Part shown: one piece after another, positions 9,876 through 61,689 of the stretch
Position numbering within the stretch: position 1 is the stretch's first letter
Layout: each line of letters begins with the position of its first letter
DNA from: Candidatus Chloroploca sp. Khr17
GTDB taxonomy: Bacteria > Chloroflexota > Chloroflexia > Chloroflexales > Chloroflexaceae
Assembly (NCBI RefSeq): GCF_004138165.1
Contig: NZ_RYFF01000019.1
Location: forward strand, 37,368 to 101,367
DNA length: 64,000 nt
Direction of reading: 5' to 3'
Notes under the pieces: model-generated
Told to the model about the DNA's origin: nothing
Seen by the model: the letters and a program-made list of their open reading frames with translations, nothing else
Database searches by the model: none
Position numbers and translations under genes: made by a program

Positions 9876-11117
9876 ATGCTGCGCACACTCGCGCTGATCC
9901 TCGCTGGCGGTGACTCGCCCGCGCTTTCGATCTTGACCGCTGAGCGCACCGAGGCTGCGGTGCCGTTCGCGGGCAAGTATCGCATTATTGATTTTACGCT
10001 CTCGAATTGTATCAATTCGAATATCTATAATGTCGGGGTGCTCACTCAGTATCGCCCCCGTTCACTCCACGCTCACCTCGGCGTTGGACGCCCGTGGGAT
10101 CTCGACCGCGCCCACGGCGGGCTCCGTGTGCTCCATCCTTCCCCTACCCCCGATGGCGGTGGTTGGCAACGTGGCACAGCTGATGCCGTTCGTTATAATC
10201 TCGATCTGATTGAAGATCAACAGGTTGATGCGGTGCTCTTGCTCGCCGGCGATCATATCTACAAGATGGATTACCGTCCGTTGCTCGATCTCCACAAAGA
10301 GCGTGAGGCCGATGTGACGATGGCTGTCCGTGGTGTCAGTCCGCACGAGGCCCGTCGTTATGGCATTGTCGCCGTCGGGGGCGATGGTCGCGTCGATCGC
10401 TTTGAGGAAAAGCCCCGCCGCGCGCAGTCAAACCTCGCTTCGATGGGCATCTATGTCTTCCGTAAGCAGTTTCTGCTCGATCTACTCAAGAATAGCCGTG
10501 ATAATGATTTTGGGCGCCATATTTTGCCCAACATTGTCACTCGCTGCAATGCCTATGCCTACCATTTCCAGGGTTACTGGGCTGATGTCGGCACGCTCCA
10601 GGCTTTCTATGAGGCGAATATGGCCCTGCTCGCCGAGTCGCCCGCGCTCGATCTCTATGATCCCGAGTGGGTCATCCATACCGCCAGTACCTATCGCCCC
10701 GGCGTCGAATTGGGCGCAACCGCGCAGGTCGAAAATGCCCTTTTGAGTGACGGCGCCCGTGTCTATGGCACTGTCGTGCGTTCGGTGCTGTCGCCTGGCG
10801 TCTATGTCGCCCCCGGTGCGGTGGTGCGCGACTCGGTCATTATGGGCGATGCCTGGATCGGCGAAGGAGCGGTGGTCGATCGCTGCATTATTGATGAGGA
10901 GGTTCGGATCGGCAAGGGCACGGTTGTTGGTGAAGGCAATGCGACGACGCCGAATCAACATGCCCCCGAACGGTTGAATACGGGCCTGACGTTGATTGGT
11001 AACCATACGCACGTCCCCGCAGGTCTGACGATTGGACGCAATGTCGCGATCAGCCCGCGCTTGGCTGCGCAGGCGTTTCCCAAAAACGGCACGGTGCCCA
11101 GTGGCGCGACCCTCTGA
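9876..11117 (+). CDS. GlgC paralogue lacking the triphosphate-binding loop (GlgD-like subunit)
   Basis: This 413-residue protein aligns end to end with the GlgC before it ('[17 protein letters not shown]', 'GDHIYKMDY', 'EEKPRR', beta-helix repeats). At the nucleotide loop it differs sharply: 'GGDSPAL' (11-17) replaces GGxGTRL, and the lysine-proline pair becomes E26-A27. The glucose-1-phosphate residues remain. In Firmicutes such a degenerate partner, GlgD, joins GlgC as a regulatory subunit; the same role here is inferred from the loop loss and tandem position. AGGAGGA lies 7 bases before the ATG at 9876. An independent sugar-nucleotide activity cannot be excluded. Confidence 0.85.
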   Translation: MLRTLALILAGGDSPALSILTAERTEAAVPFAGKYRIIDFTLSNCINSNIYNVGVLTQYRPRSLHAHLGVGRPWDLDRAHGGLRVLHPSPTPDGGGWQRGTADAVRYNLDLIEDQQVDAVLLLAGDHIYKMDYRPLLDLHKEREADVTMAVRGVSPHEARRYGIVAVGGDGRVDRFEEKPRRAQSNLASMGIYVFRKQFLLDLLKNSRDNDFGRHILPNIVTRCNAYAYHFQGYWADVGTLQAFYEANMALLAESPALDLYDPEWVIHTASTYRPGVELGATAQVENALLSDGARVYGTVVRSVLSPGVYVAPGAVVRDSVIMGDAWIGEGAVVDRCIIDEEVRIGKGTVVGEGNATTPNQHAPERLNTGLTLIGNHTHVPAGLTIGRNVAISPRLAAQAFPKNGTVPSGATL

Positions 11118-30190: not shown

Positions 30191-30337
30191 TGCGCACACA
30201 AACCAGCTACGCTGGTTTGTGTGTGCACGAAGGCGTAGTTAGTCCGCCTTCGGCGGTGGGGTGTGGCGCGGCTGCGCCGCGCCACGAGAGTTTTTGGTTT
30301 GTTTTGGCGGCTTCGCCGCCAAAACAAACCAAAAACT
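30191..30337. repeat. Cluster of perfect hairpins, partner of 5928-6039
   Basis: The first hairpin has 17-bp arms around AGCTAC (30191-30227) with one mismatch. A GTGGCGCGGC hairpin follows (30262-30284). The last (30289-30311 / 30315-30337) has 23 perfectly paired bases and a TTC loop. Its stem is related to that at 5991-6039 but differs at two pairs, both changed on both arms. The cluster lies 60 bases upstream of a small membrane-protein gene. Confidence 0.8.
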
Positions 30338-37650: not shown

Positions 37651-37754
37651 TGAATGGGCGGGTATGGGTGGCAAAGCCACCCATACCCGCCCTTCAGATA
37701 GAAGCCGGGGCGAAACTCTAGACCTACGCCATCATCGGGTTCCGCGAAGTCATT
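37651..37754. repeat. Left direct repeat with htpX 3'-end relic
   Basis: This 104-bp stretch matches 38931-39035 with seven substitutions and one indel. It holds a 17-bp hairpin (37656-37692), then a segment that on the minus strand reads 'MTSRNPMMA' and stop, the counterpart of the HtpX end 'MASRNPMIA'. Similarity fades at about 37755. It is a relic, not a gene. Confidence 0.9.
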
Positions 37755-37813
37755 CTACGAGGAGCGCTCAAGGCTCTGTCAACTCACGCCTGCACTTTGT
37801 CAAACAACAGCCC

Positions 37814-37865
37814 TTGACAAATTTAATAACCGTGATTATAATAATCACGGTTATTAAATTTGTCA
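37814..37865 (+). promoter_or_regulatory. Perfect consensus promoter inside a 51-bp palindrome (probable MarR operator)
   Basis: TTGACA (37814-37819), exactly 17 bases, then TATAAT (37837-37842) are the full sigma70 consensus. Bases 37815-37865 form a perfect palindrome with 24-base arms and a TAA centre. Each arm ends in a 15-base imperfect dyad of TAAT...ATTA type (37824-37838 and 37842-37856), 18 bases apart. One dyad covers the spacer, the other the -10 and start point. A MarR-type gene two positions downstream is the likely repressor. Confidence 0.85.
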
Positions 37866-37884
37866 CATGGAGGAGCATATACCA

Positions 37885-38298
37885 ATGTGGTCAACCCAGC
37901 ATACAATTATCACGGATGTTTCAAAAGAACAAATTTGGCAACTCTGGTCCGATGTTGAACACTGGAACAAATGGGATCACGACGTAAAGTGGTGCAAGTT
38001 AGATGGTAACTTCGAGGTCGGAACAACTTTGACCTTACAGCCAGTCGAAGGCCCCACATCAACTTCTGTTATCACCCAATGCGATTATTTACAAGGATTT
38101 ACGAATATCGCTAAACTTCCGCTATCCAAAATGAATTTCATTCATAACATCACTGAGCATGAAAGCGGAGTGGCATTAACCCATCGCGTAGAAATTTCGG
38201 GAATACTTGGGTTTCTTTTTGCCAAAATCATTGGCGAAAAAATCGCCAATGAGTTGCCTTCTGCAATGGAAAATCTGGTTAAATTAGCCAAACAATGA
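37885..38298 (+). CDS. SRPBCC (START/Bet v1-like) domain protein
   Basis: The 137-residue protein has the SRPBCC pattern: 'TIITDVSKEQIWQLWSDVEHWNKWD' at the start (quoted in part), a central beta sheet, and the long C-terminal helix 'ANELPSAMENLVKLA'. The fold makes a deep hydrophobic ligand cavity; the ligand is unknown. The ATG at 37885 is preferred over 37867, because GGAGG (37869-37873) then serves as the ribosome site. Its base composition is clearly lower in GC than the genome around it, and with the MarR gene it suggests a transferred resistance or detoxification cassette. Confidence 0.85.
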   Translation: MWSTQHTIITDVSKEQIWQLWSDVEHWNKWDHDVKWCKLDGNFEVGTTLTLQPVEGPTSTSVITQCDYLQGFTNIAKLPLSKMNFIHNITEHESGVALTHRVEISGILGFLFAKIIGEKIANELPSAMENLVKLAKQ

Positions 38299-38341
38299 AG
38301 CAACAATATGAATGTTCCCAATAATGATGAGGTTATTGCTT

Positions 38342-38806
38342 ATGAAGCCTCCTACTTCAATCTTTCAAATTGATACGCCAGAGGATAGTCCAGGTTTCGT
38401 GTTGTGGCAAGTATCAAATCTTTGGCAAAGAAGAATGAATTCAGCTTTACAGGCTGTAGATATAACTCACGTTCAGTTTGTGTTATTAGCTAACATTGCT
38501 TGGTTTACTGGAAACAATGAGACAGTAACTCAAATTCAATTGGCAACTCAGGCCAAGACGGATGTAATGATGACTTCAAAAGTCTTGCGTACACTTGAAC
38601 AAAAAAACTTGATCATTCGTGAAACTAATCCAACTGATACAAGAGCAAAATCGTTAACTTTAACCAGTAGTGGCTATCAACTACTGATTAAAGCAGTCAA
38701 AATCGTCGAACAAGTTGATAATAATTTTTTTGCATCGTTACAAAGTCATATTTCGCAGTTCAATACATTACTGTTAAGTCTTGTGGACAATAATAGCGAA
38801 TCTTAG
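38342..38806 (+). CDS. MarR-family transcriptional regulator
   Basis: The 154-residue protein shows the winged helix of MarR regulators: 'DITHVQFVLLANIAWF', 'TVTQIQLATQAKTDVMMTSKV' (recognition helix, quoted in part), 'LRTLEQKNLIIRETNPTDTRAKSLTLTSSG' with the D-x-R wing (quoted in part), and a C-terminal dimer helix. TGATGAGG precedes the ATG at 38342 by about 9 bases; two earlier in-frame ATGs have no ribosome site. It lies 43 bases after the SRPBCC gene, is equally low in GC, and probably represses both from the palindrome at 37815. Confidence 0.9.
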   Translation: MKPPTSIFQIDTPEDSPGFVLWQVSNLWQRRMNSALQAVDITHVQFVLLANIAWFTGNNETVTQIQLATQAKTDVMMTSKVLRTLEQKNLIIRETNPTDTRAKSLTLTSSGYQLLIKAVKIVEQVDNNFFASLQSHISQFNTLLLSLVDNNSES

Positions 38807-38930
38807 CTCCGGAATTAGCCCATTCCAAGGCACATGCCACCCGCGTGAACCTGGTGCAGCCAACGTTGGTATTGATAAGCCATGCAACCATTGTGCTCCT
38901 GGCAATCGGCACCGTCGCCTCCGGTGATCG

Positions 38931-39035
38931 TGAATGGGCGGGTATGGGTGGCAAAAGCCACCCATACCCGCCCATCAGATAGAAGCCGGGGCGAAACGCC
39001 AGACCTACGCGATCATCGGGTTGCGTGAAGCCATT
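38931..39035. repeat. Right direct repeat overlapping the htpX 3' end
   Basis: This is the intact counterpart of 37651-37754. It contains a hairpin (38936-38973) and the last codons of htpX, whose transcript it probably ends. The two copies are 1,280 bases apart and bracket the low-GC cassette. Confidence 0.9.
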
Positions 39036-39883: not shown

Positions 39884-39929
39884 CTGTTTTATTTTACTCC
39901 TTTTTGGTTAGGCTACGTGGTGTCGAACC

Positions 39930-40209
39930 TACGTTTCTTGATCCCAACGGGGGCTTCGACAAGCTCGGCCTCCGTCCGTTCACAATGCCCATCGTCTGCC
40001 GTTGGCTGAGCTTGTCGAAGCCAAGCCCTAGAGCAGAAAACTTTTGTTACTCACCAGCCATTAGTCTGTAACAAAAAATGTCTGGTCGCGCCGCCGACCA
40101 CGAATGCTGATCACGAATAACCGAAGAGGGGCGTTGCGGTGCGGTATTCGTTTATCGTGGCCCCATTCGTGGTCGGCGAACGACGCCAGAAAACTTCATT
40201 CACAGACTA
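39930..40209. repeat. Composite repeat: module A followed by module B
   Basis: Module A (39930-40053) runs from ACGTTTCTTGATCCCAACGG through inverted GGCTTCGACAAGCTC / GAGCTTGTCGAAGCC arms to CAGAAAACTTTTGTTACTC. Module B (40061-40209) begins TTAGTCTGTAAC and has inverted CCGACCACGAAT / ATTCGTGGTCGG arms and the end AAAACTTCATTCACAGACTA. At 53459 the same modules occur as B then A. The composite fills most of the stretch between htpX and the ABC ATPase gene. Confidence 0.88.
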
Positions 40210-40310
40210 GAAAGGCTTCAGGTTACGTGACCACACGCTCATAACAAGCATACCGTTTTGCAAAGCATCTGCACAGAGAGTGAATACCCCTTGCAGAGGG
40301 GAAAATTACA

Positions 40311-61626: not shown

Positions 61627-61689
61627 GGTAGAACCCTTCTCCTGGGCGCGAGGGCGCGACGCCCTCGCGCCCAGGAGAAGGGTTCTACC
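61627..61689. repeat. 29-bp perfect hairpin
   Basis: Arms 61627-61655 and 61661-61689 are exact complements around GCGAC, the longest perfect stem in the window. The arm start ACCCTTCTCCTGGG recurs at 47412. It lies between the pdxS promoter and the next gene's stop and is probably the end of the latter's transcript or a mobile palindrome. Confidence 0.85.

What the first reader, a model, noticed from the sequence alone, without database searches (positions are those of the whole stretch)
37814..37865. Full-consensus promoter embedded in a 51-bp perfect palindrome made of two nested dyads
TTGACA-17-TATAAT is a maximal sigma70 promoter. The bases 37815-37865 are a perfect palindrome (24-base arms, TAA centre). 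Each arm contains its own 15-base TAAT...ATTA dyad, spaced 18 bases apart, so two MarR dimers could bind the spacer and start region side by side. Such symmetry is far beyond the usual 16-20 bp MarR operator and implies tight, possibly cooperative, autorepression of a very strong promoter. The mirror strand offers only a weaker TATTAT -10.
Basis: partly seen in the sequence, partly recalled or inferred. Interest (0 to 1): 0.72.

Follow-up and report, generated by a model that had tools for sequence, protein, structure and literature searches.

The report
Palindromic promoter switch for MarR operon
A perfect 51-letter DNA palindrome sits on the predicted start signal of a two-gene unit, and a similar layout precedes many related units, also in other bacterial phyla, so it is likely the docking site where two copies of the unit's own MarR repressor would switch it off.

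Summary
In detail: 37815-37865 is a perfect 51-bp palindrome carrying TTGACA-17-TATAAT (37814-37842), its centre on base 4 of the -10. Best explanation: the promoter-operator of the downstream SRPBCC-MarR operon. Before related SRPBCC-(EVE)-MarR operons the best palindrome is centred 26-47 bp upstream of the SRPBCC start in 19 of 21 loci, and 10 of 21 beat all 300 shuffles, against 1 of 26 SRPBCC genes without this MarR. The arms covary between loci (0 of 5000 permutations). A motif built without this window ranks 37840 first of 63,964 positions. MarR-EVE-SRPBCC operons are described (Bell et al. 2020); my searches found no description of this operator. The operon lies in a 1.2-kb insert at the htpX 3' end that two congeners lack. 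Binding, repression and ligand are untested. It is a new member of a known kind; unusual are the perfect symmetry and the axis on the -10.

The parts
37815..37865 (.). Perfect 51-bp palindrome, centre A 37840: predicted MarR operator with extended outer arms
   Evidence: 25-nt arms, 100%; 0 of 300 shuffles; first of 63,964 positions with a motif made without this window
37814..37842 (+). Consensus sigma-70-type promoter TTGACA-17-TATAAT; predicted +1 near 37849
   Evidence: 12 of 12; TTGACA in 11 and TATAAT in 10 of 18 aligned loci
37826..37839 (.). Predicted MarR dimer site 1, dyad centre 37832.5, in the -35/-10 spacer and the first half of the -10
   Evidence: Internal dyad centre kept 7.5 bp from the palindrome centre; 5 of 7 pairs here
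37841..37854 (.). Predicted MarR dimer site 2, dyad centre 37847.5, over the end of the -10 and the predicted start
   Evidence: Same as site 1
37838..37866 (-). Mirror-strand promoter-like site GTGACA-17-TATTAT; its predicted start (37831) is 18 bp from the forward one
   Evidence: 10 of 12; geometry as; activity untested
37869..37873 (+). Likely ribosome binding site GGAGG of the SRPBCC gene
   Evidence: Read from the sequence
37885..38298 (+). SRPBCC (Polyketide_cyc2) gene, 137 aa, predicted ligand-binding protein
   Evidence: PF10604, E 6.4e-8; most relatives start at the matching Met-Trp
38342..38806 (+). MarR-family regulator gene, 154 aa, predicted autorepressor
   Evidence: PF01047, E 1.6e-10; subfamily alignment A1
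37755..38929 (.). Insert carrying the promoter-operator and both genes; absent from two same-genus genomes
   Evidence: DUF4058 and htpX adjacent in L072 and L073; GC 0.33-0.43 in windows over the two genes, about 0.6 in htpX
37651..37754 (.). Left copy of the htpX 3' end and its GC hairpin (direct repeat of about 100 bp)
   Evidence: 87% over 128 columns, including a weaker tail to 37777
38930..39033 (.). Right copy: 3' end of the intact htpX gene and its GC hairpin
   Evidence: HtpX models (best 362 bits, just under its cut-off of 369)

Best explanation
The 51-bp palindrome is likely the promoter-operator of the SRPBCC-MarR operon, predicted to be held by two dimers of the operon's own MarR protein, which would cover the -10 element and the start of transcription and so shut off their own promoter. 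Shown: the palindrome; the consensus promoter sequence; the axis on base 4 of the -10, here and in relatives; covarying arms; and the dyad spacing of 15 bp in the aligned family. Inferred: each dimer takes one 14-bp dyad (37826-37839, 37841-37854); [quoted passage not shown] bound dimers exclude RNA polymerase; a small ligand, unknown, releases them, and the SRPBCC protein then binds or processes a related molecule. The outer arms (37815-37825 and 37855-37865) are predicted to add contacts, and in this genome they also create a mirror -35. The operator lies with its regulator gene on an insert that two congeners lack (shown by comparison); that it came by horizontal transfer is inferred.
For: Palindrome and promoter. 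Operon kept: of 29 subfamily-MarR loci examined, 21 have an SRPBCC gene upstream on the same strand, in the window's phylum and on plasmids of Lactococcus, Pantoea, Arthrobacter and Priestia. Operator kept: in the 120 bp before the SRPBCC start the best palindrome is centred at -26 to -47 in 19 of 21 loci; 10 of 21 reach 0 of 300 shuffles. Control: of 26 SRPBCC homologues without this MarR, 2 reach 15 of 300 or fewer (one of them 0), centred at -69 and -83. Register: the hexamer at the fixed offset is exactly TATAAT in 10 of 18 aligned loci, and TTGACA lies 15-18 bp upstream in 11 of 18. Covariation: positions 4-14 of the arms match their own partner in 143 of 198 cells, permuted mean 113, 0 of 5000; without the window 132 of 187, 0 of 5000. 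Internal dyads: the centre at 7.5 bp pairs 4.69 of 7 on average; the next best centre 3.11 of the 6 pairs that fit there. Motif made without the window: top of 63,964 positions, 26.2 against 9.0 bits; leave-one-out rank 1 in 15 of 15 loci. It also occurs without SRPBCC: before EVE-MarR (L009) and before a MarR-first unit of Protochlamydia (L045), and is not found in two more distant MarR loci (L001, L002). Best PDB hit by profile: Rv2887, E 4.4e-15, just ahead of MepR and others at about 1e-14; two Rv2887 dimers each cover 15 bp on nearly opposite faces of 30 bp (PMC5526998 section 9).
Against: No binding or expression data. Spacing is not universal: 22 bp in two Priestia plasmids, one dyad only in Lactococcus, whose site the motif does not find well (6.2 bits). 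Three loci of one family (G167, G175, G183) have weak symmetry, though the motif, made without them, ranks the expected place first there. Pantoea has no good -35. Of seven MarR loci without an SRPBCC gene that were scanned, L009, L045 and L057 score above 22 bits (in L057 one arm only is strong), L070 18, and L008, L069 and L071 10 or less. Control loci also have their best, not significant, palindrome at -26 to -47 in 8 of 26 cases, so position alone proves little. Loci are not independent: G091 and G719 share a genus, and the permutations do not remove kinship.
Confidence: 0.82

Rival explanations
1. The palindrome is above all a bidirectional promoter: its symmetry serves divergent transcription from two starts 18 bp apart, and MarR binding is secondary.
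For: Mirror site GTGACA-17-TATTAT in the window; a reverse TATTAT at the fixed offset in 11 of 18 loci; overlapping -10 elements with starts 18 bp apart are the commonest bidirectional geometry (PMC10268837 and PMC12825309, passages).
Against: A reverse -35 with 5 or more of 6 matches occurs only in the window, 1 of 18. No reverse-strand ORF of 60 aa or more lies between 37211 and the palindrome. The symmetry of relatives lies in 14-bp dyads, which a promoter does not need.
Confidence: 0.08
2. The operator is one long palindrome read by a single MarR assembly (one dimer or a tetramer spanning both arms), not by two separate dimers.
For: Whole-palindrome symmetry is stronger in the window (25 of 25) than either internal dyad (5 of 7); the outer arms are symmetric beyond permutation in the family (5 of 5000; 34 of 5000 without the window).
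Against: Internal dyads recur at one place across loci; a MarR dimer covers about 15 bp in the Rv2887 complex.
Confidence: 0.15
3. The palindrome is a hairpin element: transcription terminator, RNA structure or mobile-element end.
For: Perfect inverted repeat inside an insert with flanking direct repeats; many hairpins elsewhere in the window.
Against: The predicted transcript starts inside the palindrome, and its first 52 nt fold no better than shuffles (z 0.24); no terminator-like site there; no Rfam family at its gathering score, only weak microRNA-model matches that follow the inverted repeat; it lies 60 bp inside the insert; the 31-bp core has one copy in the genome at up to 3 mismatches.
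Confidence: 0.03

Closest known systems
MarR-EVE-SRPBCC three-component operons (Bell, Wolf, Koonin 2020, PMC7641849; section 8 read in full, passages elsewhere)
   Same: A MarR gene with a small SRPBCC gene, with or without EVE; G292, G571 and G507 have SRPBCC-EVE-MarR (EVE by PF01878).
   Different: The window's unit has no EVE gene; the genome's one EVE hit is on another contig. The paper's main text holds no 'palindrom', 'operator' or 'inverted repeat'; its supplements were not seen.
Rv2887-DNA complex (PMC5526998; section 9 read in full, passages elsewhere)
   Same: Best PDB hit by profile; two dimers, each on 15 bp, two-fold arrangement on 30 bp, the spacing of the 14+1+14 operator.
   Different: Its footprint is GC-rich and only partly palindromic, and lies before another gene, Rv0560c; the window's operator is fully symmetric and lies on its own operon's -10.
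MepR operator at the mepA promoter (review PMC3617543; passages read)
   Same: Sites overlapping -35 and -10; MepR may bind as two dimers, with tight repression.
   Different: Described with high- and low-affinity sites and a GTTAG motif; no perfect 51-bp symmetry in the passages read.
Bidirectional promoters (PMC10268837, PMC12825309; passages read)
   Same: Overlapping -10 elements on both strands, starts 18 bp apart.
   Different: Here the symmetry extends through predicted repressor dyads and the -35; reverse activity is untested.

Membership tests
MarR family regulator | MarR winged-helix domain above the curated cut-off | tested here: met
   PF01047, 41.2 bits against 24.6
MarR family regulator | Binds an inverted-repeat operator as a dimer | not testable with these tools
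   Needs a gel shift or footprint; only sequence symmetry is shown
MarR-EVE-SRPBCC operon | SRPBCC and MarR genes adjacent and in one direction | tested here: met
   37885-38298 and 38342-38806
MarR-EVE-SRPBCC operon | EVE gene in the operon | tested here: not met
   43 bp between the two genes leave no room; the only EVE hit of the genome is on C136. So it is related to these operons, not a complete three-component member
Subfamily operator (defined here) | Two 14-bp dyads spaced 15 bp, axis on base 4 of the -10 | tested here: met
   Leave-one-out motif rank 1 of 63,964; internal dyad 5 of 7
Bidirectional promoter | Divergent transcription starts about 18 bp apart | not testable with these tools
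   Geometry present by sequence; no RNA data

The most novel reading that the evidence does not exclude
A self-symmetric switch: the two-fold axis of a pair of repressor dimers coincides with the two-fold axis of a bidirectional promoter, so one symmetric DNA element fires in both directions when free and is silenced in both when the dimers bind. The symmetric core is kept across several phyla with arms that change together, and in this window it has been perfected out to a mirror -35.
Probability: 0.2. Interest if true: 0.6.

Novelty: new member of a known kind. Interest (0 to 1): 0.42.

Why it matters
It gives a predicted, widely kept operator (majority arm ATATGCGCGCATAT, two copies around the -10) to MarR-EVE-SRPBCC systems, whose ligand and role are, as far as I saw, only predicted. 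A reporter with this promoter would allow a direct search for the ligand. It is also a clean natural case where repressor symmetry and promoter symmetry share one axis.

Tried and rejected
RNA role: fold and Rfam (four matches, all below their gathering scores) gave nothing. Extra targets in the genome: only this place matches the 31-bp core at up to 3 mismatches. The 2-mismatch half-site at 10491 lies inside a 437-aa ORF that I read as glucose-1-phosphate adenylyltransferase (recalled, no family search) and is taken as chance. Phages: no relative of the MarR in 50,697 phage records or in viral contigs (close relatives only). The protein search with the SRPBCC protein found one distant relative besides itself (among 8 candidates), so it shows little. 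The genome-collection search with the MarR protein gave two distant MarR loci. Composition as a sign of transfer is weaker than it looks: the two genes have GC 0.33-0.43 and htpX about 0.6, but the DUF4058 gene on the left, which congeners share, is also low (0.43-0.53).

Selections made: one search was given 29 loci with this MarR; the 8 without an SRPBCC gene on the same strand are L008, L009, L045, L057, L059, L069, L070 and L071 (L059 begins at the MarR, at a contig end). One search used all 21 others. Searches used 18 of the 21 (both Priestia plasmids, even centre, and Lactococcus, one dyad, left out; three of the 18 were placed by motif, not by their best palindrome). The motif used 15 (G167, G175, G183 left out, then scanned). 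Six of 35 plasmid records with a match were opened. SRPBCC genes were called with a profile built here from six proteins. Of four plasmid SRPBCC proteins put to Pfam, Pantoea (AHSA1) and Arthrobacter (Polyketide_cyc) pass a cut-off, Priestia matches below it and Lactococcus has no match.

Full report
What is there. The window holds a perfect 51-bp palindrome at 37815-37865 and, starting one base to its left, a sigma-70-type promoter with all 12 consensus bases. The palindrome centre, A 37840, is the fourth base of the -10 hexamer TATAAT (37837-37842). The SRPBCC gene starts after a further 19 bp (ATG 37885, GGAGG at 37869-37873) and a MarR gene follows (38342-38806). Families: PF10604 and PF01047. 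In 300 dinucleotide shuffles of the 120 bp before the SRPBCC start, none reaches the observed palindrome score.

Where it sits. In two genomes of the same genus, G014 and G015, the DUF4058 gene, a GC hairpin and htpX are adjacent with nothing between (L073, L072). In the window 37755-38929 is extra, and about 100 bp of the htpX 3' end with the hairpin is present on both sides. So the promoter-operator and both genes lie on one insert; htpX stays intact in the right copy. The two genes have GC 0.33-0.43 and htpX about 0.6, but the DUF4058 gene on the other side is 0.43-0.53. Horizontal transfer is inferred, mainly from the absence in congeners and in the family (in 41 genomes of the family, the SRPBCC protein has 3 matches, the window's own and two distant ones).

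The operon in relatives. The MarR belongs to a subfamily; the 21 relatives aligned have 43-60% identity, and 1263 proteins match in the large protein collection. In 400 genomes of the phylum 10 hold a match at E 1e-25 or better; class searches gave 2 of 47, 3 of 249, 4 of 158 and 13 of 110 genomes, the sets overlapping. Of 29 loci of the subfamily examined, 21 have an SRPBCC gene upstream on the same strand. Several have an EVE gene between: G292, G571, G507 and Priestia (PF01878; positions). Such MarR-EVE-SRPBCC units are described as putative ligand-activated systems by Bell et al. 2020 (PMC7641849, section 8 read in full).

The operator in relatives. The best palindrome in the 120 bp before the SRPBCC start is centred between -26 and -47 in 19 of 21 loci; 10 of 21 reach 0 of 300 shuffles and 12 of 21 reach 15 of 300 or fewer. 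The control was 26 SRPBCC homologues without this MarR (one has a distant MarR nearby): 2 of 26 reach 15 of 300 or fewer, one of them 0, centred at -69 and -83; 8 of 26 have their best, not significant, palindrome at -26 to -47. Strong cases besides the window: G362 (39 bp), G324 (39 bp), G292 (37 bp), the Pantoea plasmid (45 bp), two Priestia plasmids (46 bp), the Arthrobacter plasmid (37 bp), G507 (41 bp) and G719 (25 bp).

Register and covariation. Eighteen loci were aligned by the centre. The hexamer at the fixed offset is exactly TATAAT in 10 of 18, and TTGACA lies 15 to 18 bp upstream in 11 of 18. So the symmetry is fixed to the -10, not to the -35. Outside the hexamer (positions 4-14) the two arms of a locus match in 143 of 198 cells; dealing the right arms out among loci gives 113 on average and never reaches the observed number in 5000 trials; without the window 132 of 187, again 0 of 5000. 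Positions 15-25: 87 of 198, 5 of 5000; without the window 76 of 187, 34 of 5000. The loci are related to different degrees, so these are not strict probabilities.

Two dyads, 15 bp apart. Each arm has an internal dyad. Of the centres tested (5 to 13.5 bp from the axis), 7.5 bp stands out: 4.69 of 7 pairs on average, next 3.11 of the 6 that fit at 6.5 bp. The column-shuffled value at 7.5 is 4.20 (sd 0.14), since the columns themselves are conserved and palindromic: the majority arm reads ATATGCGCGCATAT. Three of the seven pairs involve the -10 bases. The sites in the window are 37826-37839 and 37841-37854. Exceptions are Priestia (22 bp) and Lactococcus (one dyad).

Independent recovery. A motif built from 14 other loci puts 37840 first of 63,964 positions in the window, 26.2 bits against 9.0 for the next, which overlaps it; in leave-one-out trials all 15 loci of the motif rank first in their own locus. 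It also ranks the expected place first in G167, G175 and G183, which were not in the motif, and finds a site before the EVE-MarR unit of G106, before the MarR of a Protochlamydia plasmid and, with one strong arm, in G700; L070 has 18 bits. It finds none in L008, L069 and L071 (10 bits or less), little in Lactococcus (6.2), and none in two distant MarR loci. So the site goes with this MarR subfamily, though not with every member.

How it likely works. The best PDB hit by profile is Rv2887, just ahead of MepR. In its DNA complex two dimers each cover 15 bp, sit on nearly opposite faces and are related by a two-fold axis (PMC5526998 section 9). Two dimers on 14+1+14 bp around the -10 would leave no room for RNA polymerase. 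The forward start is predicted near 37849, inside the second site. A small ligand is expected to release MarR; this step, the ligand and the role of SRPBCC are inferred from the families. MepR at mepA is a precedent for two dimers over -35 and -10 (review PMC3617543, passages).

Two-way promoter. The mirror strand carries GTGACA-17-TATTAT. The two predicted starts, 37849 and 37831, are 18 bp apart, the commonest geometry of bidirectional promoters (PMC10268837, PMC12825309, passages). In 11 of 18 aligned loci the reverse hexamer is TATTAT, but a reverse -35 with 5 or more of 6 matches is found only in the window. Whether the reverse direction is used is open.

Novelty. The operon type is known. 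Four literature searches that pair MarR with SRPBCC or EVE (listings only, apart from PMC7641849; one search listed 12 of 2,403) showed no description of this operator, and the main text of Bell et al. does not hold the words for one. The library holds open-licence papers only. A MarR operator with two sites over a promoter is a known kind. Unusual are the perfect 51-bp symmetry and the axis on the -10. A symmetric site is seen in the window's own unnamed phylum and in records of Pseudomonadota (Pantoea), Actinomycetota (Arthrobacter), Bacillota (Priestia, Lactococcus) and Chlamydiota (Protochlamydia). The axis lies on base 4 of the -10 in the window's phylum, Pantoea, Arthrobacter and Protochlamydia, not in Priestia or Lactococcus.

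They added the Pfam test of EVE and of plasmid SRPBCC proteins and the count of reverse -35 elements.

Noticed in passing
37651-37754 and 38930-39033: About 100 bp of the htpX 3' end with a GC hairpin is duplicated on both sides of the SRPBCC-MarR insert; two congeners have the empty site. How this 1.2-kb insert, in which I saw no transposase gene, came to be flanked by such long repeats is unexplained.
   Followed up: partly
39920-40210: Stretch between htpX and an ABC-transporter-like ORF matches dozens of places in two same-genus genomes: a dispersed repeat family.
   Followed up: no
61627-61689: Longest palindrome of the window, 63 bp, GC-rich; further strong hairpins at 30289, 32069, 2098, 19934 and 5991.
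   Followed up: no
37893-37920: Start of the SRPBCC gene resembles the operator core (28 nt, 71%; half-site with 3 mismatches at 37906-37920); may be chance.
   Followed up: no
L016 (1917-2354), L053, L054: Relatives have an EVE gene between SRPBCC and MarR; the window's unit lacks it and the only EVE hit of the genome is on contig C136.
   Followed up: partly
L049, L050: In Priestia plasmids the two dyads are 22 bp apart around an even centre, against 15 bp in the aligned loci, so the spacing has changed at least once.
   Followed up: no
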